64,000 bases of DNA from a virus: the IMG/VR virus record IMGVR_UViG_3300043410_001333, positions 1 through 64,000 of that record; one strand, given 5' to 3'. Each line of letters begins with the position of its first letter. Position 1 is the stretch's first letter. The notes beneath the pieces were generated by a model. It was not told the origin of the DNA. It did no database searches and was given only the letters and a program-made list of their open reading frames with translations. Positions 12,439 through 60,029 of the stretch are shown here, piece by piece. Both the position numbers and the translations under genes were made by a program.

Positions 12439-13623
12439 ATGCCCTCTAAACCGTGTATTATGTGTGGATTAGCAAAACCTATATACGATGACGGTAAGTG
12501 TCGTTATTGCTATGCTGATTGGATTGTAACTACAGGGCGATCTGAAACAGAACTGCCTCCACGTTGCACTGTTGCTAATTGCGACCGGTTTGCCGAAAAG
12601 AAAGGTATGTGTGATCGTCACTATAGACGTGTTGCGGACCACGGACATTCAGACAAGATAAGACAGCAAGGTCCTAGCGAATTACGACAACATCCTTATT
12701 TTAAGAATTGGGAATATCTGAAACGCAATAACGTATTGTGCGACGAGTGGAACGATTTTCGATCTTTTATACGGCATGTAGGCGAGAGACCTACTGAATA
12801 TCATAAAGCGTATAGACCAAGAAAAAACGAATTATACGGTCCTGACAATTTTGAATGGGTTTTAAGTCGTTCTAAGAATTTTGCTGCGCACTATGTAGAA
12901 TTTAAGCCTTCTCGTGAAAAATCCGTACTAAATCGTTTTTACGGTATGTCACAACAACAGTATGACACGTTGTTAGCGGAACAAGGCGGAAAATGCGCTG
13001 TGTGTGATAAAAACACTGACGTATATGGTAAGGCTACTGAAGTAAACCAATCACTGTCTGTTGACCACGATCATTCAACAGGCGAGATAAGAGGATTGTT
13101 GTGCAGAAAACACAATTTTGCTTTGGGTCAATTAGACGATAATCCTGATATTATAAGAAAACTTTTAGAATATGTTACCAAACCTAACCACACTGGTTGG
13201 TTTGTTCCTGAAAAAAATTACTATGTAAAAGGCACCCCGGCGGCGTACAGAAAACCAAACACAAAAAATAAAAATTGTTCTGTGAACGGATGTTATAATC
13301 CAGTTAAAGCAAAAAATTTGTGCAGTTCACACTATGCACAGAAAAGAATAACAGGTTCTACAACCGTACCCGTGCGGTTACGTCCTTCCTGCTGCGTGGA
13401 TGGCTGTAACGAGATATCTGTCGCTAAGTTGATGTGCCGTCCGCACTACAACGCAGACTACCAAAAAAGATTGTCAGAAAAGAAACGATCCGAAAAAACA
13501 TCATTTAAAAACTTGACCGTATCTTCTCTTGTATGTGATAATCCAACCCACAATTCCGTTAACATTCGTGGAGATACGGTCCCGAAAGAACGGCTATACC
13601 CACTAGGAGTTAACAATGCTTGA
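12439..13623 (+). CDS. Endonuclease VII-like homing endonuclease with zinc-finger repeats (394 aa)
   Basis: Central domain (about residues 165-250) matches the recombination endonuclease VII family typified by T4 gp49: C186-x2-C189, the D209-H210-D211 active-site block, and C222-x2-H225 followed by an FALGQLDD helix. It is flanked by three copies of a C-x4-C-x9-C-x2-H unit (C43/C48/C58/H61; C280/C285/C295/H298; C318/C323/C333/H336), which look like DNA-recognition zinc knuckles. Base composition is clearly more AT-rich than the neighbouring structural genes. With its own promoter and the terminator before it, it behaves as a mobile insertion between the capsid and beta-helix genes. A true Holliday resolvase role is less likely, since RusA is encoded elsewhere. 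Confidence 0.8.
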   Translation: MPSKPCIMCGLAKPIYDDGKCRYCYADWIVTTGRSETELPPRCTVANCDRFAEKKGMCDRHYRRVADHGHSDKIRQQGPSELRQHPYFKNWEYLKRNNVLCDEWNDFRSFIRHVGERPTEYHKAYRPRKNELYGPDNFEWVLSRSKNFAAHYVEFKPSREKSVLNRFYGMSQQQYDTLLAEQGGKCAVCDKNTDVYGKATEVNQSLSVDHDHSTGEIRGLLCRKHNFALGQLDDNPDIIRKLLEYVTKPNHTGWFVPEKNYYVKGTPAAYRKPNTKNKNCSVNGCYNPVKAKNLCSSHYAQKRITGSTTVPVRLRPSCCVDGCNEISVAKLMCRPHYNADYQKRLSEKKRSEKTSFKNLTVSSLVCDNPTHNSVNIRGDTVPKERLYPLGVNNA

Positions 13624-41128: not shown

Positions 41129-44100
41129 CTAGCCAAACCGCGTTGAAATATCGCAAGCGGCTGCGATGGGTAGCCCGGCTGTCCAGGAGGGCTGGGTTAC
41201 TAGGCACTGTTCAAATTCTGGCAGACGGCGTTCGGCGTATTCGCGGGGTATTTCAGCCGTGATAGAGTCATGCACATGTAATACGATAGGAAATCCCGCG
41301 TCATACATATTACAGATTGCAGTAGCAAGCATGTCTGCAGCTATCGCCTGAACGCAATTAGACACTATAAACGGTTGTCCTTCCTTAGTTCTTACTGTGA
41401 AACGGTGATTAGGCCCTGCGTTTAGAATATCGTAAACTTCCCTAAACTCCCCGGAGGCGCAAACATTAACTGTTCCGATAATCCTTGGTTCGCGCGGTAA
41501 ATAAGAGTAGCTTTGTTTATTCCAGATAATTCTACGGCTTCTGCTACTAGCATCGGTCCGCGCGGAGTGTTTATCGTGTGGTTGCTTCGCTTGTTTCGCA
41601 TTTGCGTACGACGAGTAGCCCAACGACAGTTCTCGCGTGAATACCCTCGTGAGTTGTCTATGCGATCCAACGATAGTCCTTTCACATAATCTTTCCCTAT
41701 GTCTGTCCAAAATATGTCGAAATTTTTCCACTCCGGACAAACAGTTATCCCGCGCCCTCCGTAATTTTTCCAACTGACGTTTTTTGTGTTGTAACATCTT
41801 GCGTGCATAGCTTTCCATATTTGATACACAGGCAGTTTGCATTTCCCGTGTGTTATCGCTTTTTTCCCGGCGCGCTTTAAGTCTGAAGTTTGACATCCGC
41901 AAGATTGCAGACGGTCTATAGTAAACGCCCGAACTGTTAGCTGGCGTGTATTCCCGCACTGACATCTTGCTAACCACACTGCCCTTCGGCTGTCCGACCC
42001 TAAATATCTTTCTGCCGTCAGGATACCTGTCTGGTAACCAGTGATGTCTAGCGAATGACGCGGTAGCTTCTCTCGCGCTTCCTTCAGAAGCATTTTTCCA
42101 ACTAGCATTTATCAAAACCTTATGATCCGGAGTTATGTTTACTCCATCAAAATCTATTGTTTTTTGTTTACCTCTATGAATGAGTCCATCATGGCTAACC
42201 CACCTATGACCGTCCCATAGAAGATCACGCCTAGTAACGTTTACTATAGGTACCCACCCCCTCGACGTTAATACATCCGTGTCTTCGGCTAAACAATTTT
42301 CCGTTGCTAACCCGCGCCAGAATGTTCTACGAAATATTGCACGTCCTTTGATTGTTAACATAGTCAAATCTAAAGTTTTTTTAGGTGATCCGTCGTCCCA
42401 AAAACCCTGTTCTAGTCTAGGCGCCCAGTAGCGCATAACACGCCCAGACGGAAGACGACACATCAAACAATTACCGTCCATACACCATGCTATATTGTGG
42501 AGGGGAGCTACGCTGAATGTAGACCCCGGATACATAACTGCGTTCACGGCAGCTTCTAAATTGGCGTTCCAAAAATTCACCAACATAGGATTGTCGGCTC
42601 GGTAACTCGCGACAATCGGAGCGCCTTCTTCCTTCGCGATCCGCAGCCCGTAGTTCATAGCCGCTGGGATGAACGCGTTCACACCCCCAGCAAAACCCAA
42701 GAACAATGTCATGACCTTGCCAATCTGGCGTTCTGTTTTGGTCAACTCGTGTGGCAGTTTGCCGTAGGTGGGCGCGGCCTGGGCACGGTAGATGTCTTCA
42801 CCGCGGCGGAACACTTCAACTTTGTCTAGCTGCTGTGCAAGCCACACTGGGATTCGTGCTTCAATCTGCGAGAAATCTCCGTTCAGGAACATATGACCTT
42901 CGCGCGCTGTCAGCGTACGTCGCAGCATGCGCCCGATCCACGGCAGCACACCTTCTACATAAGTGCGTTTCTGTGCGTCCTCGCGGGTCCATGTATAGAG
43001 CGTTTCTATTTCATCCCTATCACCGCGACGGCCGACTTCGATAGCGTTGCGCAACGCCATATCAGATAGCCGCTCAAACTCTTTTTTCTTTACTTTCGGA
43101 TTAACTCCTGTTATCAACTCCACTTCATCCGGGTTGGCAACAACATCGCGGACGAAATTGTGCGGCTGCCACGCAGCCCCTGAAAATCGCCCTGTGCTTT
43201 GCGCGCCGAACAATATCAAAGCACCCCGCAACCGTCCGTCCGGGCTCATAGACGACAACATGCGTCGCAGCTTCTTGACGGACGCTTTGGCAGCTTCTGC
43301 GCGCCATTCCAGTGCCTGCCTGCAGTGATCGGGCACATCGTCGCGCGCCAGCAAATCGGCAATATCGGACTTACGCAGCCGGTAAGCTATCTTCTTACCG
43401 TTGTCTTCGTCGTCCTCGTCTTCTTCCTCCGGTTCGACATCGATACCCGCTGAACCCTTCTTGGGCAACACAACGCCGTTGTCCATCAGCCAGACTTTGA
43501 GTTTTTCAATATTGGACGTGGACGGCACAGCGCCGCTCGTTAGCTTACGTATCTCCGCATCCAGCCGCTTGGTTTCTTCCGTAGCGGCTTTCTCCAACCC
43601 GCGCACCAGTTCAACGTCCATAAGAATGCCACGGTCGTTAATCTCGCGGTCAATCTCGCGCATCCTGTCCCACGGCGGCGTCGTGAACCATGGTGGCAAA
43701 CGCTTTAGCGTTTCTTCCTCCATGATCGTGTCCTGGATACAGCGGTTCGTCAGCCATTCCAGGTCAGCACCTTGGATAACTGGTGTCTTGTTCTTATTCG
43801 TTACACGCCGAAGAAGGTTGTTGTCTTTCAAATTTGATACATAATTAACCCCTACAGCTTTGGCGCAAGCGTCAAGCGCGCGGGGTAAGTTAGCTCCTGC
43901 GGCAAAATGCATGGAATCCAACCATTGCTCCGGTTTAACCGCAGGAAACCTATAGCGACGAGTTAAAATTATATCCCATGCAAAACGATCGAAAAAAGTT
44001 ACGTTCCACCCCGACAGCAAACCCCCGCTGTTCACGTGGTCAACCAGATCCTGCGGCGGCGGTTCGCCTTTATGCCATACACGCGGCGGTGACGGATCGC

Positions 44101-44224
44101 CTAGCGGGTGATAAGCAAACAGTATAACGTCTGTGTCAGGATCATTCAGGTATGCCACAGCGCCGACCTTTTTAAGATCGGCGCTGGCGTGAGTTTCTAC
44201 GTCAAACGAATATACAGCGGTCAT
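41129..44224 (-). CDS. Family A DNA polymerase containing an intein (1031 aa precursor)
   Basis: Replicative polymerase. The N-terminal DnaQ-like 3-5 exonuclease begins YSFDVETHASADLKK. Pol motif A is NGDFSQIEARI (449-459), motif B is around GKVMTLFLGFAGG, and motif C is VLHVHDSITAEIP (981-993; the usual HDE is HDS here). Without the intein (residues 644-956) the mature length is about 718 aa, like T7-type polymerases. The insertion point is in the conserved EN|CVQAIAADML block. CAGGAT precedes the start. An HNH endonuclease is encoded in another frame inside the intein. Confidence 0.9.
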   Translation of the reverse strand: MTAVYSFDVETHASADLKKVGAVAYLNDPDTDVILFAYHPLGDPSPPRVWHKGEPPPQDLVDHVNSGGLLSGWNVTFFDRFAWDIILTRRYRFPAVKPEQWLDSMHFAAGANLPRALDACAKAVGVNYVSNLKDNNLLRRVTNKNKTPVIQGADLEWLTNRCIQDTIMEEETLKRLPPWFTTPPWDRMREIDREINDRGILMDVELVRGLEKAATEETKRLDAEIRKLTSGAVPSTSNIEKLKVWLMDNGVVLPKKGSAGIDVEPEEEDEDDEDNGKKIAYRLRKSDIADLLARDDVPDHCRQALEWRAEAAKASVKKLRRMLSSMSPDGRLRGALILFGAQSTGRFSGAAWQPHNFVRDVVANPDEVELITGVNPKVKKKEFERLSDMALRNAIEVGRRGDRDEIETLYTWTREDAQKRTYVEGVLPWIGRMLRRTLTAREGHMFLNGDFSQIEARIPVWLAQQLDKVEVFRRGEDIYRAQAAPTYGKLPHELTKTERQIGKVMTLFLGFAGGVNAFIPAAMNYGLRIAKEEGAPIVASYRADNPMLVNFWNANLEAAVNAVMYPGSTFSVAPLHNIAWCMDGNCLMCRLPSGRVMRYWAPRLEQGFWDDGSPKKTLDLTMLTIKGRAIFRRTFWRGLATENCLAEDTDVLTSRGWVPIVNVTRRDLLWDGHRWVSHDGLIHRGKQKTIDFDGVNITPDHKVLINASWKNASEGSAREATASFARHHWLPDRYPDGRKIFRVGQPKGSVVSKMSVREYTPANSSGVYYRPSAILRMSNFRLKARREKSDNTREMQTACVSNMESYARKMLQHKKRQLEKLRRARDNCLSGVEKFRHILDRHRERLCERTIVGSHRQLTRVFTRELSLGYSSYANAKQAKQPHDKHSARTDASSRSRRIIWNKQSYSYLPREPRIIGTVNVCASGEFREVYDILNAGPNHRFTVRTKEGQPFIVSNCVQAIAADMLATAICNMYDAGFPIVLHVHDSITAEIPREYAERRLPEFEQCLVTQPSWTAGLPIAAACDISTRFG
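41357..42295 (-). other. Intein in DNA polymerase (about 313 aa)
   Basis: Begins at Cys644 with the N-terminal splice block CLAEDTDVLTSRGWVPI. Block B is GVNITPDHKVLI (TxxH). The C-terminal blocks are REVYDILNAGPNHRFTV (F) and PFIVSN before +1 Cys957 (G), with Ser in place of the usual penultimate His. Splicing should yield EN-CVQA, a continuous polymerase motif. The centre does not resemble an intein endonuclease in frame; instead it is the out-of-frame translation of the nested HNH gene. Confidence 0.85.
41422..42108 (-). CDS. HNH endonuclease nested out of frame inside the polymerase intein (228 aa)
   Basis: Recognised by its conserved pattern: DITGYQTGILTAERYLGSDS, a Cys pair set (C49/C51 and C70/C72), then HGKCKLPVYQIWKAMHARCYN, NYGGRGITVC, the catalytic LDRIDNSRGYSRENCRWAT and RRTQMRNKRSN. 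This is the standard phage HNH family. It is read one base shifted from the intein frame. Tandem stops (TGA TAA) lie directly before ATG 42108, so it is a discrete gene. Its stop at 41422 lies inside intein block F. No strong ribosome binding site; a GGAAAA lies before an alternative ATG five codons in. Confidence 0.85.
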   Translation of the reverse strand: MLVGKMLLKEAREKLPRHSLDITGYQTGILTAERYLGSDSRRAVWLARCQCGNTRQLTVRAFTIDRLQSCGCQTSDLKRAGKKAITHGKCKLPVYQIWKAMHARCYNTKNVSWKNYGGRGITVCPEWKNFDIFWTDIGKDYVKGLSLDRIDNSRGYSRENCRWATRRTQMRNKRSNHTINTPRGPMLVAEAVELSGINKATLIYRANQGLSEQLMFAPPGSLGKFTIF

Positions 44225-50172: not shown

Positions 50173-50513
50173 TGCGCGTGTTGGTGTGCGGCGGCAGAGA
50201 CTACAGTGACTGGCAACACGTATGGGCTGTGTTAGACGAATATCATTCGTTGTATAACATAGACACTGTTATCCACGGCGCCGCGCGTGGCGCGGATACT
50301 TTAGCCAGCGACTGGGCGCATAATCGCAATGTGCGAGTAGAACCTTATCGCGCACAGTGGAACACGCACGACAACGCTGCTGGTCCTATTCGCAACAAGC
50401 AAATGTTGGACGAAGGCAAACCCGATATTGTTATCGCGTTTCCAGGCGGAAGGGGCACAGAAAACATGATCCAGCAAGCAACCGCTGCTGGTGTTCAGGT
50501 GGGGAGAGTATAA
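50172..50513 (+). CDS. DUF2493 / SLOG-family protein (113 aa)
   Basis: Rossmann-like SLOG domain: MRVLVCGGRDYSDW, then VIHGAARGADTLASDWA, AGPIRNKQML and IAFPGGRGTENM. These Gly-rich loops match DUF2493/YspA-type proteins, relatives of nucleotide-binding LOG and DprA families that bind ADP-ribose-like or cyclic nucleotides. In a phage it could act on nucleotide signals; the ligand is unknown. One-base overlap with the previous stop. Confidence 0.75.
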   Translation: MRVLVCGGRDYSDWQHVWAVLDEYHSLYNIDTVIHGAARGADTLASDWAHNRNVRVEPYRAQWNTHDNAAGPIRNKQMLDEGKPDIVIAFPGGRGTENMIQQATAAGVQVGRV

Positions 50514-50517
50514 TTTG

Positions 50518-52494
50518 GTGCCGAGTGTCACGCTCCTTACCGGAGATGCTTTAGACCAACTCCGCAATCTTCCTGATGAAAGTGTGCATTGTTGTGTGAC
50601 TTCCCCTCCTTATTTCGGGTTGCGGTCATATTTACCCGGCGTAGTTCGGTTAAAATTGAATATACCCGACAACGTTTCAGCGGCGGTTATTGAAAAATTA
50701 ACTGCGTATGGTATAATGCCTGTTTATAGTAATACAAATGAAATAAATGGTAGTTCGTGCGTAAATCAAACGGTCAGTTTGCCGCAGGGTATCACTGGCG
50801 GAAGCACCAAGCATTCCGCGATAGAGAATGGCTTATCTACAACTACACAGACTTGGGGCGAAGTTCGGGAGACATCGCAGCAGAATTTGGTACAACCGGA
50901 GAAGCTATTTTATTTTGGTTGCGGAAGTACGACATTCCTCGCAGATCAATTTCCGAGGCGCGAAGTACTAAAAAATGGGGACTTAGCGGACAGAACAACC
51001 CCATGTGGAACAAACGCGGAGAACTTAACCACCGATGGCTTGGTGGAGTTACCGCCGAAAGGCAAGCGTTTTACGCAAGTTACGAGTGGAAACAAGCGTG
51101 TTCGACGGTCTGGAAACGCGACGACGCCAGATGTCGTAGATGCGGGCTGCACAAAAAAGATCAGCCAGACTTGTCTTACCACATCCACCACATTATTAGT
51201 TTCGCCAACGTTGAAACACGAGCCGATCCGTCAAACCTCGTGTTGTTGTGTGAAAAATGCCACCGCTTTGTCCACTCTCGCGCTAACACAAACCGCGAAT
51301 TTATTCTTAAAACGTGATATTCCTTGTAACTTGCTGCGCTATTTTGAACCGGCGGAAATAGGTTTAGAACCCACACCCGACGAATATATCGCGCGTCTAG
51401 TTAGTGTGTTTCGTGAAGTGCGACGTGTGTTACGCAGCGACGGGTCGTTTTGGTTGAACATAGGCGATTCGTACGCGCGTAATCCATCAAAAGGTGGTAG
51501 CGGCCCTAGTGGTAAGAACAGCGCGTTCTACGGAGATTCCTATACGGATGCTCAAACAGCCGCCGATAGATCATTCGGAGAAGCCAAAGAAAAAGACCTG
51601 CTAATGATACCAGCCGCTGTCGCCATCGCTTTACGCGCGGACGGTTGGTATCTTCGGTCCAACATCGCGTGGACCAAGGGTTCGGTTATGCCGGAAAGTG
51701 TGAAAGACCGACCTAGCAGCGCGCACGAAAGCATATTCATGCTGACCAAGACGACGCGATATTTCTATGACGGGTTTGCTGTTGCTGAGTCCCCCGCTGA
51801 ATCTTCCCTAAAACGGATAACGCAACCCAACTTCAAAAATCAAAAAGGTGGCGAGAAGGATTACGGAAACGGCACTAACAGCAACCGAAGCGCGCGAAAG
51901 ACCCTGGAAAACTTTGCGGCTAATCCAACCAGACAACTCCGCAACCACTGGCACATCAACCCTGAACCGCTGCGAGACGCACACTTCGCCGCTTTCCCAA
52001 CCCGTCTTGCTAGTCGCTGTGTCCAAGCAGCTACGTCAGAATACGGCTGCTGCGGGGTGTGCGGGGCGCCGTATAAGCGTATCATCGCCCTAGGTGAACC
52101 GGATGCAGAACATATGGCCGCGTGCGGGGCTGACAGCAGCGGTGGTTATGATGGTGTATCGCAGAAAGACTACGCCTCCGCGCAAGCCCAGGACGCTTCC
52201 GCTACCAAAGCCCGTATTCTGGCGGGTATGCGCAAGAAGGAAACGGTCGGTTGGGAAAAGACTTGCGCTTGCGATTGCACTGACGTAGTGCCCGCTTTGG
52301 TGCTGGACCCGTTTTCAGGAGCCGGAACGACAGCGCTGTGTGCTGTCAGATTAGGACGCGATGCTATCGGTATCGACCTTAACAGCGAATACCACGAAAT
52401 AGGTGTGCGGCGTATCGCCAATCCAGACGCAAAGTGTCTGGACACAAACGGCGAACGACTTCCATTCAGAGAAGGAAAGGTGTTTGTGTCTTGA
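50518..52494 (+). CDS. DNA methyltransferase interrupted by an HNH gene (658 aa ORF)
   Basis: Beta-class N6-adenine/N4-cytosine methyltransferase: catalytic TSPPYFGL at residues 28-35 and SAM-binding LDPFSGAGTTALCAVRLGRDAIGIDL near the C-terminus, with a Cys cluster (CGVCGAPYKR, CACDC) of the family. Between SYLPG (to 50640) and PAEIGLEPTPDEY (from 51349) there are about 700 bases with no counterpart in such enzymes. This segment holds an HNH gene in another frame, yet the methyltransferase frame remains open throughout. GTG 50518 is preferred because GGGGAGAG lies eight bases upstream. Whether the ORF makes an active enzyme is unknown. Confidence 0.8.
   Translation: MPSVTLLTGDALDQLRNLPDESVHCCVTSPPYFGLRSYLPGVVRLKLNIPDNVSAAVIEKLTAYGIMPVYSNTNEINGSSCVNQTVSLPQGITGGSTKHSAIENGLSTTTQTWGEVRETSQQNLVQPEKLFYFGCGSTTFLADQFPRREVLKNGDLADRTTPCGTNAENLTTDGLVELPPKGKRFTQVTSGNKRVRRSGNATTPDVVDAGCTKKISQTCLTTSTTLLVSPTLKHEPIRQTSCCCVKNATALSTLALTQTANLFLKRDIPCNLLRYFEPAEIGLEPTPDEYIARLVSVFREVRRVLRSDGSFWLNIGDSYARNPSKGGSGPSGKNSAFYGDSYTDAQTAADRSFGEAKEKDLLMIPAAVAIALRADGWYLRSNIAWTKGSVMPESVKDRPSSAHESIFMLTKTTRYFYDGFAVAESPAESSLKRITQPNFKNQKGGEKDYGNGTNSNRSARKTLENFAANPTRQLRNHWHINPEPLRDAHFAAFPTRLASRCVQAATSEYGCCGVCGAPYKRIIALGEPDAEHMAACGADSSGGYDGVSQKDYASAQAQDASATKARILAGMRKKETVGWEKTCACDCTDVVPALVLDPFSGAGTTALCAVRLGRDAIGIDLNSEYHEIGVRRIANPDAKCLDTNGERLPFREGKVFVS
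50757..51317 (+). CDS. HNH endonuclease nested out of frame in the methyltransferase (186 aa)
   Basis: GTG 50757 is the only possible start, since TAG lies two codons upstream. N-terminal DNA-binding part: NGQFAAGYHWRKHQAFRD and a helix-turn-helix-like SGDIAAEFGTTGEAILFWLRKYDI. C-terminal HNH: CRRCGLHKK...YHIHHIISFANVETRADPSNLVLLCEKCHRFVH with both CxxC pairs and the HH active site. Encoded in the -1 frame relative to the methyltransferase. A probable homing endonuclease lodged in a host gene. Confidence 0.85.
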   Translation: MRKSNGQFAAGYHWRKHQAFRDREWLIYNYTDLGRSSGDIAAEFGTTGEAILFWLRKYDIPRRSISEARSTKKWGLSGQNNPMWNKRGELNHRWLGGVTAERQAFYASYEWKQACSTVWKRDDARCRRCGLHKKDQPDLSYHIHHIISFANVETRADPSNLVLLCEKCHRFVHSRANTNREFILKT

Positions 52495-57356: not shown

Positions 57357-60029
57357 ATGGACGTTAACGTACCCGTGAACCTGCCTGCTTATGTGGTGCC
57401 TGATGGCATGGCGCGAAGCGTTTTTGAAAACAAGTACAGCCGTCGCAAGGCTGACGGCACGATGCAGTCGTATGAAGAACGAATGCGTGAAGTCGTGCTG
57501 GGGAATTTTATGTTGGACCCTGCGTGGCTTCCTGAAATGGAGACAAACAGCGCAGCACACGCGGACTGGTCCGAAAAACAGGTAGCGCTGTTTAACGATT
57601 TCCAGAATACGACTGCTTTGGCGGTGGCGGGTATTATGCCTACCGCGGGGCGGCATATCCAGCATGGCGATACCGACCAGCCCGGCAAGATCATGGAGTT
57701 GCACACTAACTGCAGCACAGCGGCATTCAGTTTCATGCTTATGCGACTGCTGCTGCGGGGATCTGGTGTGGGTCGCGACTACAGCGCAGAGACATGCCGT
57801 GTAAACTGGGACAATATGCCAGACGTGCGGCTGGTGCTGGATGAAAGCCATCCAGATTTTCATAAGACAGGCATGTACGGCTGGGTAGAGTCGTTGCGGG
57901 ACGCGCGACATAAGTATGATTCTTCGTCAGAAAACACACGCTGGTTTGTCGTTGAAGATTCTCGCGAAGGCTGGTCGAAGGTCGTTGAAATCCTTGAAAC
58001 AGCCGCTTGGCAAGAGAAGCACAAGAACAAGTTGTTTGTGTTTGACTTCTCCCAGGTGCGGCCGGAAGGCGCTCCTATCATGGGCCTGCAAGGGCGCCCT
58101 GCGTCGGGACCGCTGGCGTTCATGAAGGCGGTCAATCAAGTAGCGTCTGTCAAGGGCGTCGGCATGAAGCCGTGGAAGCAGGCGTTGTTCATCGATCACT
58201 ATATTGCAAGCGCGATTGCGTGGGGCGGCGCACGTCGCGCTGCCAGAATGGCTACGAAGAACTGGCGTGACCGAGACGTTATCGAGTTCATTGACATCAA
58301 GCGCGGCGGTTTTCTATGGTCCGCCAACAATTCTATCCTTGCTGACAAAGAGTTTTGGGAAGCAGCACGTGAGCCGCGTCCGTCACACGGACGCCGTGTA
58401 TTTGAGGCTATCGTAGGTGCGGCTTATTGGGACGCCTCTGGCGAACCCGGTATCATCAACGTAGACATGTTGAACCTGAACACGAACGGCATGGATAAGA
58501 TAACCGGCGCAACTCTTATCAATGAAAACGTATATACAGACTTACACCACAAGACAAAGGAAATGATCGATAACGTATTAGCGCATGTGAAGCAGGTTAG
58601 TTATCCGTTTATCACTAATCCTTGCTTTGCGGCTGATACTCTTATTGTGACCGACAAGGGTGCGTTTCCTATCAAGGACTTGGTAGGAAAAGAAGTTAAC
58701 GTATGGGACGGCACTAACTGGCGCACGGTGAATAATTTCCGTGTTACGGGGACCGATCAGCCGATGTTGAAGATCACGTTGACTAGCGGTGATGTTTTGC
58801 GCGTTACACCCGCCCATACTATGTACCTCGCGGATAATACTAAACTAACCGCCGCTGATTTGGTTCCTGGTTCTGTGCTGCTTACGGCGCCTCATATTGC
58901 TGAGACACCGTTTACAGTCGCGTCTGTAGATACAGACGGAATAGACGCGGAAGTATACTGTTGCACTGTGTACGGAACACACAAAATAACAACTGCTATA
59001 GGAATTACAACCGGACAGTGCGGCGAAATAGTTTTGAGCAACTACGGAGGATACTGCGTTATCGGTGATGTCAATCTTGCACGTGTTACACACATGAAGC
59101 AAGCACTTGACGCAGTTAGCCTGATGTCCAAGTTCCTTGTGCGTGTCAATCGTATGCGTTGTGAATACGCCGCTGAGGTAGAACGGACCAACCGTATCGG
59201 AGTAAGCTTGACAGGCATCCACGAGTTCGCCTGGAACCTTTACGGTCTTACGTTTTGGGACCTTATCGGATATTACGACGTTATGGGAACCCCGGCCGCT
59301 GTGCAGCACAAGGCACATCTGTTCTGGTGGGGTCTTCATCACATGCAGCGGGAAGCGGAGAACAGCGCCACCGTCACCGCTGACAGGTTTGGGATGGTAT
59401 CGCCGCACACGGTCACGACTATCAAGCCGAGCGGCACTGTATCAAAGGTCATGAACGTAACGGAAGGTGCCCATCTTCCGGCACTGAAGCACTATCTGCG
59501 GTGGGTCCAGTTCAAGATCGGAGACGCTGACATTGATACCTTGACCGCTCGGGGCTACCCGTTCAAGGACATATCGCATCGCTACAGTGGACATGTCGCT
59601 ATTGGATTTCCCACCAAGCAGCCTATCGTTGATTTGATGGGCGATAAGGTAGTTACGGCCGACGAAACAACGCCTGAACAGAACTTCAAGTGGCTGCGGT
59701 TGCTGGAACATTTCTGGCTGGGCGAAAACGGTCGGAACAACCAAGTCAGCTACACATTGAAGTACGATTCCAAAACCACGTCATATCAAGATTTCATGGA
59801 CATGATCCTTGAATGGCAGCCCCAGGTCCGCTGCTGTTCGGTCATGCCACAGTCCGACTGGCGTGAGTCTGAACGTATCTACGGCTACGTTCCCGAACAG
59901 CCGATCACCAAGGATGAATATGAAGCCTACATGGCGGTCATTAATCCGGTTGCCAAGGAAGCCTACGACGACGAACAACTGATGTGCGAGGGCGGCGTGT
60001 GCCCGATTGAGATGGATATCAACCGATGA
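57357..60029 (+). CDS. Class II (adenosylcobalamin) ribonucleotide reductase with mini-intein (890 aa precursor)
   Basis: Reduces ribonucleotides using vitamin B12, independent of oxygen. Family marks: NCSTAAFSFMLMRLLLRGSGVGRDYS near 118-142, GARRAARMATKNW, NP-CGEIVLSN after splicing (active-site Cys), VTTIKPSGTVSKVMNVTEG, and a C-terminal Cys pair (MCEGGVCPIEM) for re-reduction. Residues 423-554 are an intein; the mature protein is 758 aa. No NrdB/R2 partner, as expected for class II. Supplies dNTPs with ThyX, kinase and MazG-like genes. Confidence 0.85.
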   Translation: MDVNVPVNLPAYVVPDGMARSVFENKYSRRKADGTMQSYEERMREVVLGNFMLDPAWLPEMETNSAAHADWSEKQVALFNDFQNTTALAVAGIMPTAGRHIQHGDTDQPGKIMELHTNCSTAAFSFMLMRLLLRGSGVGRDYSAETCRVNWDNMPDVRLVLDESHPDFHKTGMYGWVESLRDARHKYDSSSENTRWFVVEDSREGWSKVVEILETAAWQEKHKNKLFVFDFSQVRPEGAPIMGLQGRPASGPLAFMKAVNQVASVKGVGMKPWKQALFIDHYIASAIAWGGARRAARMATKNWRDRDVIEFIDIKRGGFLWSANNSILADKEFWEAAREPRPSHGRRVFEAIVGAAYWDASGEPGIINVDMLNLNTNGMDKITGATLINENVYTDLHHKTKEMIDNVLAHVKQVSYPFITNPCFAADTLIVTDKGAFPIKDLVGKEVNVWDGTNWRTVNNFRVTGTDQPMLKITLTSGDVLRVTPAHTMYLADNTKLTAADLVPGSVLLTAPHIAETPFTVASVDTDGIDAEVYCCTVYGTHKITTAIGITTGQCGEIVLSNYGGYCVIGDVNLARVTHMKQALDAVSLMSKFLVRVNRMRCEYAAEVERTNRIGVSLTGIHEFAWNLYGLTFWDLIGYYDVMGTPAAVQHKAHLFWWGLHHMQREAENSATVTADRFGMVSPHTVTTIKPSGTVSKVMNVTEGAHLPALKHYLRWVQFKIGDADIDTLTARGYPFKDISHRYSGHVAIGFPTKQPIVDLMGDKVVTADETTPEQNFKWLRLLEHFWLGENGRNNQVSYTLKYDSKTTSYQDFMDMILEWQPQVRCCSVMPQSDWRESERIYGYVPEQPITKDEYEAYMAVINPVAKEAYDDEQLMCEGGVCPIEMDINR
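58623..59018 (+). other. Mini-intein in RNR (132 aa) with terminal Gln
   Basis: Begins at Cys423 with CFAADTLIVTDKGAFPIKDL (block A); block B GDVLRVTPAHTMYL (TxxH); block F AEVYCCTVYGTHKITTAI. The C-terminus is TTGQ before +1 Cys555, so the usual His-Asn is Gly-Gln. It splits the conserved NPCGE active-site motif so that the active Cys is the +1 residue. No endonuclease domain. Splicing competence is inferred. Confidence 0.8.

What the first reader, a model, noticed from the sequence alone, without database searches (positions are those of the whole stretch)
41357..42295. HNH endonuclease encoded out of frame inside an intein of the DNA polymerase
The intein frame (blocks A, B, F, G around Cys644-Asn956) is continuous. 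Its centre, however, is not a LAGLIDADG or HNH domain in frame. The same DNA read one base later encodes a complete standard HNH protein (41422-42108), preceded by tandem stops and ending inside block F. Intein endonucleases are normally fused in frame; an overlapping, separately translated endonuclease gene would be a different way for an intein to be mobile. The intein frame crosses about 229 codons of the HNH gene with no stop, which by chance with equal base usage is of order 1 in 100,000.
Basis: partly seen in the sequence, partly recalled or inferred. Interest (0 to 1): 0.88.

Follow-up and report, generated by a model that had tools for sequence, protein, structure and literature searches.

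The report
Endonuclease gene hidden inside an intein
A phage DNA polymerase carries a self-splicing insert (an intein), and the same stretch of DNA, read one base later, encodes a second complete protein, an HNH endonuclease; 140 non-redundant inteins found here share this two-genes-in-one design, so it is a real and widespread but apparently undescribed way of building a mobile intein.

Summary
The polymerase ORF (41129-44224, minus strand) contains an intein, Cys644-Asn956. Between its two splicing halves lies a complete 228-aa HNH gene (41422-42108) in the +1 frame.

In public phages, IMG/VR and prokaryote genomes I found 140 non-redundant contiguous inteins of this family with an HNH in the same place: 71 in phase +1, 69 in phase +2, none in frame. 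They sit at several sites in family-A polymerases and in SNF2 helicases.

Both frames are maintained:
- In 61 clusters the intein frame has 0 stops where about 295 are expected; the third frame is as expected (717 vs 723). Free-standing HNH genes show no such deficit.
- Substitutions in the overlap pile up at the HNH frame's third codon position. The endonuclease is therefore the protein under selection there, and the intein frame is a stop-free linker (disordered in AlphaFold2).
- Many phase +1 members have a start codon with a Shine-Dalgarno-like motif at one conserved place.

Exact empty sites, and inteins far more alike than their host polymerases, indicate mobility. Best reading: a mini-intein carrying an overlapping, independently translated endonuclease gene. 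Splicing, translation and cleavage are inferred. Closest published case: the ShiLan domain, an out-of-frame HNH in a methylase without an intein.

The parts
41129..44224 (-). DNA polymerase (family A) ORF, 1031 aa, precursor containing the intein
   Evidence: PF00476 8.4e-16; phrog_17 6.6e-80
41357..42295 (-). intein, Cys644-Asn956, 313 codons, continuous frame
   Evidence: junction
42257..42295 (-). splicing block A (CLAEDTDVLTSRG)
   Evidence: alignment A1
42113..42145 (-). splicing block B (GVNITPDHKVL); its DNA also holds the Shine-Dalgarno-like site used by the HNH gene
41399..41437 (-). splicing block F (VYDILNAGPNHRF), overlapped at its start by the end of the HNH gene
41357..41374 (-). 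splicing block G (PFIVSN), followed by Cys +1 of the C-extein (41354-41356)
41422..42108 (-). overlapping HNH endonuclease gene, phase +1, 228 aa: zinc-finger-like CxC..CGC, HNH core, C-terminal helix-turn-helix-like region
42118..42122 (-). Shine-Dalgarno-like TAAGG, 9 nt before the HNH ATG
42109..42114 (-). TGA and TAA stops in the HNH frame directly before its ATG; they exclude a read-in fusion from the intein N half in this frame
42091..42093 (-). second in-frame ATG, at the start position conserved in the phase +1 group (just after the W-K of block B's tail); no Shine-Dalgarno-like motif here in the window
41438..42010 (-). approximate part of the intein frame read from the same DNA as the HNH core: stop-free, unconserved, predicted disordered linker

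Best explanation
This is a class 1-type mini-intein (Cys at position 1, Asn at the end, Cys +1) that has captured a complete HNH homing-endonuclease gene, with its own start and stop, in the loop where other inteins carry a fused endonuclease domain. Because the inserted gene keeps its own stop codon, it can sit there only out of frame. Ribosomes on the polymerase mRNA read straight through in the intein frame and make a long unstructured linker between the two halves of the splicing domain; the intein then excises itself. Other ribosomes start inside the intein, at an ATG or GTG next to block B, and make the free HNH protein. That protein cuts intein-free polymerase genes of co-infecting phages, and repair copies the intein with its hidden gene into them. 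Selection keeps the HNH protein, and in the intein frame only the absence of stops. Shown here: the anatomy, its recurrence, the constraint on both frames, empty sites and horizontal spread. Inferred: internal initiation, splicing, cutting.
For: Recurrence: 140 non-redundant contiguous inteins, 71 at +1, 69 at +2, 0 in frame (first set). Intein frame kept open: 0 stops against 294.6 expected in 61 clusters, third frame 717 against 722.9; 18 free or fractured HNH genes show 162 against 154 and 251 against 266 and none is open. HNH frame under protein selection: third-position changes dominate in 18 independent pairs (693 of 1267 and 737 of 1296), while before the HNH the intein's own third position dominates. 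In Jerseyvirus the polymerase frame's second position takes most changes (35 of 50; 32 of 45), HNH 94-95% identical against 82-84% for the intein frame. Start: ATG/GTG at one conserved place in 22 of 33 phase +1 inteins, 18 of them also with a Shine-Dalgarno-like motif, against 0 of 37 phase +2. Splicing domain: two confident halves and a disordered middle, matching mini-inteins. Mobility: exact 897-nt empty site; SP-101 and S532 differ by 22.9% in the N-extein but 2-8% in the intein; APSE-7 and L057 share HNH at 96% and N block at 98% with exteins at 73%.
Against: No expression, splicing or cleavage data. The first His of the HNH motif is Arg throughout the group, so cleavage is not assured. 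Foldseek found no solved match for the HNH model. Shine-Dalgarno motifs are partly a by-product of coding E/K-G-W; phase +2 members have no clear start, and their HNH frame is often open far upstream. A few HNH frames are broken (L057, L111).
Confidence: 0.85

Rival explanations
1. The HNH reaches its frame by ribosomal frameshifting, so that an intein-N/HNH fusion is made rather than a free protein.
For: In phase +2 relatives the HNH frame is open back to about intein residue 10-30 and has no well-conserved start.
Against: In the window two stops stand directly before the HNH ATG; in many phase +1 members a stop lies about 6 codons before the conserved start. Start codons at that place are specific to the phase +1 group.
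Confidence: 0.07
2. The HNH gene is a passenger or relic without function, and only the intein frame matters.
For: The intein frame is always open while a few HNH frames are broken; splicing is needed for the polymerase.
Against: In the overlap the HNH frame, not the intein frame, is the one conserved as protein, both at deep distances and within Jerseyvirus.
Confidence: 0.04
3. A group I intron with an HNH gene, as the Sodalis phage SO-1 record annotates its own copy.
For: HNH endonucleases are usual in phage introns; record note.
Against: Only tRNAs reach the Rfam gathering score in the window; the frame runs through without stops; blocks A, B, F, G and a Hint-like model are present.
Confidence: 0.01
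4. Assembly error: two compensating indels hide an ordinary in-frame intein endonuclease.
For: None found; the window is a single IMG/VR record.
Against: Same phase in many independent records, including isolate genomes.
Confidence: 0.005

Closest known systems
[quoted passage not shown] Arsenault et al. 2025, PMC11855218)
   Same: Insertion without stops in the host frame, HNH gene hidden in another frame, disjunct distribution taken as homing.
   Different: No intein and no splicing could be found there; the insertion stays in the host protein. Here the hidden gene lies inside a self-removing intein.
Inteins with a fused homing endonuclease (LAGLIDADG or HNH in frame; established knowledge)
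   Same: Hint-type splicing domain, endonuclease between blocks B and F, spread to empty sites.
   Different: The endonuclease is a separate overlapping gene, never in frame in 140 cases.
Split inteins of 'fractured genes' with a free endonuclease gene between the halves (Dassa et al. 2009, from memory; paper not held)
   Same: A free-standing endonuclease gene lies between the N and C halves of an intein. Eight relatives found here are of this form, the C half often starting with its own Met.
   Different: Here the intein frame is continuous, so splicing is in cis and both proteins share the same bases.
Hamiltonella phage APSE-1 P45/P46
   Same: The same architecture and phase; the record annotates an HNH gene inside the polymerase gene.
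   Different: No published account of P46 as an out-of-frame intein endonuclease was found with the searches available; the 1999 paper is not held.

Membership tests
Intein (Hint splicing domain) | Nucleophile at position 1, blocks A/B and F/G, terminal Asn, C/S/T at +1 | tested here: met
   Cys644, Asn956, Cys957; conserved TxxH block B; only a weak NCBIfam intein_Nterm match
Intein (Hint splicing domain) | Splicing-domain fold | tested here: met
   About 93 N-terminal and 30 C-terminal residues mostly at pLDDT over 90; best PDB matches are mini-inteins
Intein (Hint splicing domain) | Inserted at a conserved host motif; empty sites exist | tested here: met
Intein (Hint splicing domain) | Self-splicing activity | not testable with these tools
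   needs expression and mass spectrometry
Intein with fused homing endonuclease | Endonuclease domain in frame with the splicing domains | tested here: not met
   HNH in phase +1; 0 of 140 non-redundant inteins in frame
Split intein / fractured gene | Intein frame interrupted, halves on separate ORFs | tested here: not met
   frame continuous in the window; met in 8 relatives
HNH endonuclease (phrog_374, I-HmuI-like) | Profile match over the core | tested here: met
   E 2.4e-58; I-HmuI E 0.0083 with alignment A7
HNH endonuclease (phrog_374, I-HmuI-like) | Catalytic His of the first HNH strand | tested here: not met
   LDR in place of the VDH of I-HmuI, Arg invariant in 26 sequences
Group I intron | Ribozyme core | tested here: not met
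   no Rfam match other than tRNAs at gathering score
ShiLan-type hidden HNH | Out-of-frame HNH in a stop-free insertion of a host gene without splicing domains | tested here: not met
   splicing domains present here; the description does fit another gene of the window, 50491-52494

The most novel reading that the evidence does not exclude
A whole class of phage inteins, at several sites in polymerases and SNF2 helicases, encodes its homing endonuclease only as an overlapping out-of-frame gene. Such genes were captured at least twice, in different phases, and the intein frame is kept open by selection. The class forms a natural bridge between mini-inteins, mobile inteins and split inteins.
Probability: 0.8. 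Interest if true: 0.85.

Novelty: new variant of a known kind. Interest (0 to 1): 0.8.

Why it matters
Intein mobility is textbook knowledge with one layout: splicing domain and endonuclease in one chain. Here the two are separate proteins on the same bases, so expression of the endonuclease is uncoupled from splicing and the endonuclease can be lost or changed without harming the host protein. It suggests how a complete endonuclease gene can enter a mini-intein in one step, and how one stop plus a new start could then give a split intein. It also means that annotation misses these endonucleases: 151 GenBank phage records match at least 80% of an intein-bearing Jerseyvirus-type polymerase, and those listed are mostly annotated as plain or intein-containing polymerase without the HNH gene. 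Those phages, with exact empty sites among close relatives, make homing directly testable in laboratory hosts.

Tried and rejected
Single-protein scan of IMG/VR with the polymerase gave only remote relatives. Pfam and NCBIfam do not recognise the HNH, and NCBIfam sees the intein only below its cut-off. Foldseek against the PDB found nothing for the HNH model, so its assignment rests on sequence. A genome scan with the diverse alignment A1 could not be run; a narrower one worked. An alignment with two rows in a wrong frame (A2) was discarded. A tree of the splicing domains clusters the phases strongly but is too short to date or count the captures. Group I intron and assembly error were considered and rejected (see rivals). 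Literature searches (10 of 10 used) found the ShiLan papers but no account of an intein with an out-of-frame endonuclease; the bioRxiv preprint 10.1101/2025.01.02.630785, whose title mentions non-canonical intein architecture, and the papers on APSE-1, vB_SenS-Ent1 and fractured genes are not held, so priority is not certain.

Full report
What is there. The polymerase ORF 44224-41129 (minus) is continuous for 1031 codons. Residues 644-956 are an intein: Cys1, block A CLAEDTDVLTSRG, block B GVNITPDHKVL, block F VYDILNAGPNHRF, terminal Asn, Cys +1. Taking it out gives a polymerase that aligns without a gap at the junction to intein-free polymerases. Between blocks B and F the same DNA read one base later encodes a 228-aa protein, 42108-41422, which matches the phage HNH family phrog_374 (E 2.4e-58) and, weakly, I-HmuI. 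TGA and TAA stand directly before its ATG, a TAAGG lies 9 nt upstream, and its stop lies inside block F.

Is it chance? Permuting synonymous codons of the HNH gene gives 10.0 expected stops in the intein frame; none is seen, and none of 20,000 permutations is stop-free.

Relatives. tblastn against phage records found polymerases that align along the whole precursor, and in the same DNA an HNH about 40% identical: Hamiltonella phages APSE, Shewanella SFCi1, Caulobacter RW. In all of them the HNH is out of frame, at +1; in a second group (Pseudomonas MR14, Vibrio 97.13, EBPR siphovirus 2, Sodalis SO-1, Salmonella Jerseyvirus) it is at +2; a third HNH type (Streptococcus Javan113, a Gardnerella phage) is also at +1. 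A scan of IMG/VR with the intein N half, a genome scan and two further viral scans gave, after removal of duplicates, 140 contiguous inteins with an HNH of this family: 71 at +1, 69 at +2, none in frame; 8 interrupted ('fractured') inteins with the HNH between the halves; and 85 free HNH ORFs. Hosts are family-A polymerases at several sites and SNF2-type helicases. A few mini-inteins of the family lack the HNH.

Constraint. In 61 clusters the intein frame over the HNH has no stop where 294.6 are expected, while the third frame has 717 against 722.9. This is conditioned on contiguity, but interrupted inteins are few (8 against 140), and free or fractured HNH genes show no deficit (162 against 154; 251 against 266). 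In 18 independent pairs the third position of the HNH frame takes 55-57% of changes in the overlap, whereas before the HNH the intein's own third position does. Within Jerseyvirus the polymerase frame's second codon position, normally the most conserved, takes 35 of 50 and 32 of 45 changes. So the HNH is the protein conserved there and the intein frame is only kept open. AlphaFold2 agrees: the intein model is confident for about 93 N-terminal and 30 C-terminal residues and disordered between them, and its best PDB matches are mini-inteins.

Translation. In the +1 group the start sits just after the conserved Trp that follows block B: ATG or GTG at one exact position in 22 of 33, 18 of these with a Shine-Dalgarno-like motif, against 0 of 37 in the +2 group (Fisher p 2e-10; the sequences are related, so the p-value is only indicative). 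The Gardnerella phage has AAGGAGGT 8 nt before an ATG. In the window the better start is 42108. The +2 group has no clear start.

Mobility. Salmonella phage nctD30 has the exact empty site of the 897-nt intein, and many Jerseyvirus records match the polymerase with the intein missing. SP-101 and S532 differ by 22.9% in the upstream extein but 2-8% in the intein. L057 and APSE-7 share HNH (96%) and N block (98%) with exteins at 73%.

Interpretation. An intact endonuclease gene with its own stop can enter a mini-intein only out of frame if the host frame is to stay open, which explains the absence of phase 0. The fractured relatives look like a next step, a stop in the intein frame and a new start for the C half. 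That order of steps is inference.

Limits. Splicing, initiation and cleavage were not tested. The first His of the HNH motif is Arg in the whole group. The literature available here was open-access only; the nearest published case is the ShiLan domain (PMC11855218), which lacks an intein. The window's own methylase gene (50491-52494) carries a separate hidden HNH of that ShiLan kind.

Noticed in passing
50491-52494 (+), HNH at 50757-51317 (+): A DNA methyltransferase has a stop-free insertion of about 240 residues without recognisable intein motifs; inside it, at phase +2, lies a 186-aa HNH gene (phrog_8446, 1.8e-25). It resembles the ShiLan domain. Expected stops in the methylase frame 2.8, P(0) = 0.012.
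   Followed up: partly
58623-59018 (+), in the ribonucleotide reductase ORF 57357-60029: A 132-residue mini-intein that seems to end in Gln (..TTGQ|C), without endonuclease.
   Followed up: partly
12439-13623 (+): A 394-aa protein combining endonuclease VII-like and HNH-like regions.
   Followed up: no
L042, L055, L088, L091, L104, L043: Interrupted (split) polymerase inteins with a separate ORF, mostly HNH, between the halves; several C halves have a Met just before block F.
   Followed up: partly
L057, L084, L123, L127: Polymerase genes with two inteins at different sites; in L057 one has a +2 HNH and the other a +1 HNH.
   Followed up: no
L031 (Sodalis phage SO-1): GenBank notes call this polymerase/HNH overlap a 'type I self-splicing intron'; the sequence shows an intein with a +2 HNH.
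   Followed up: yes
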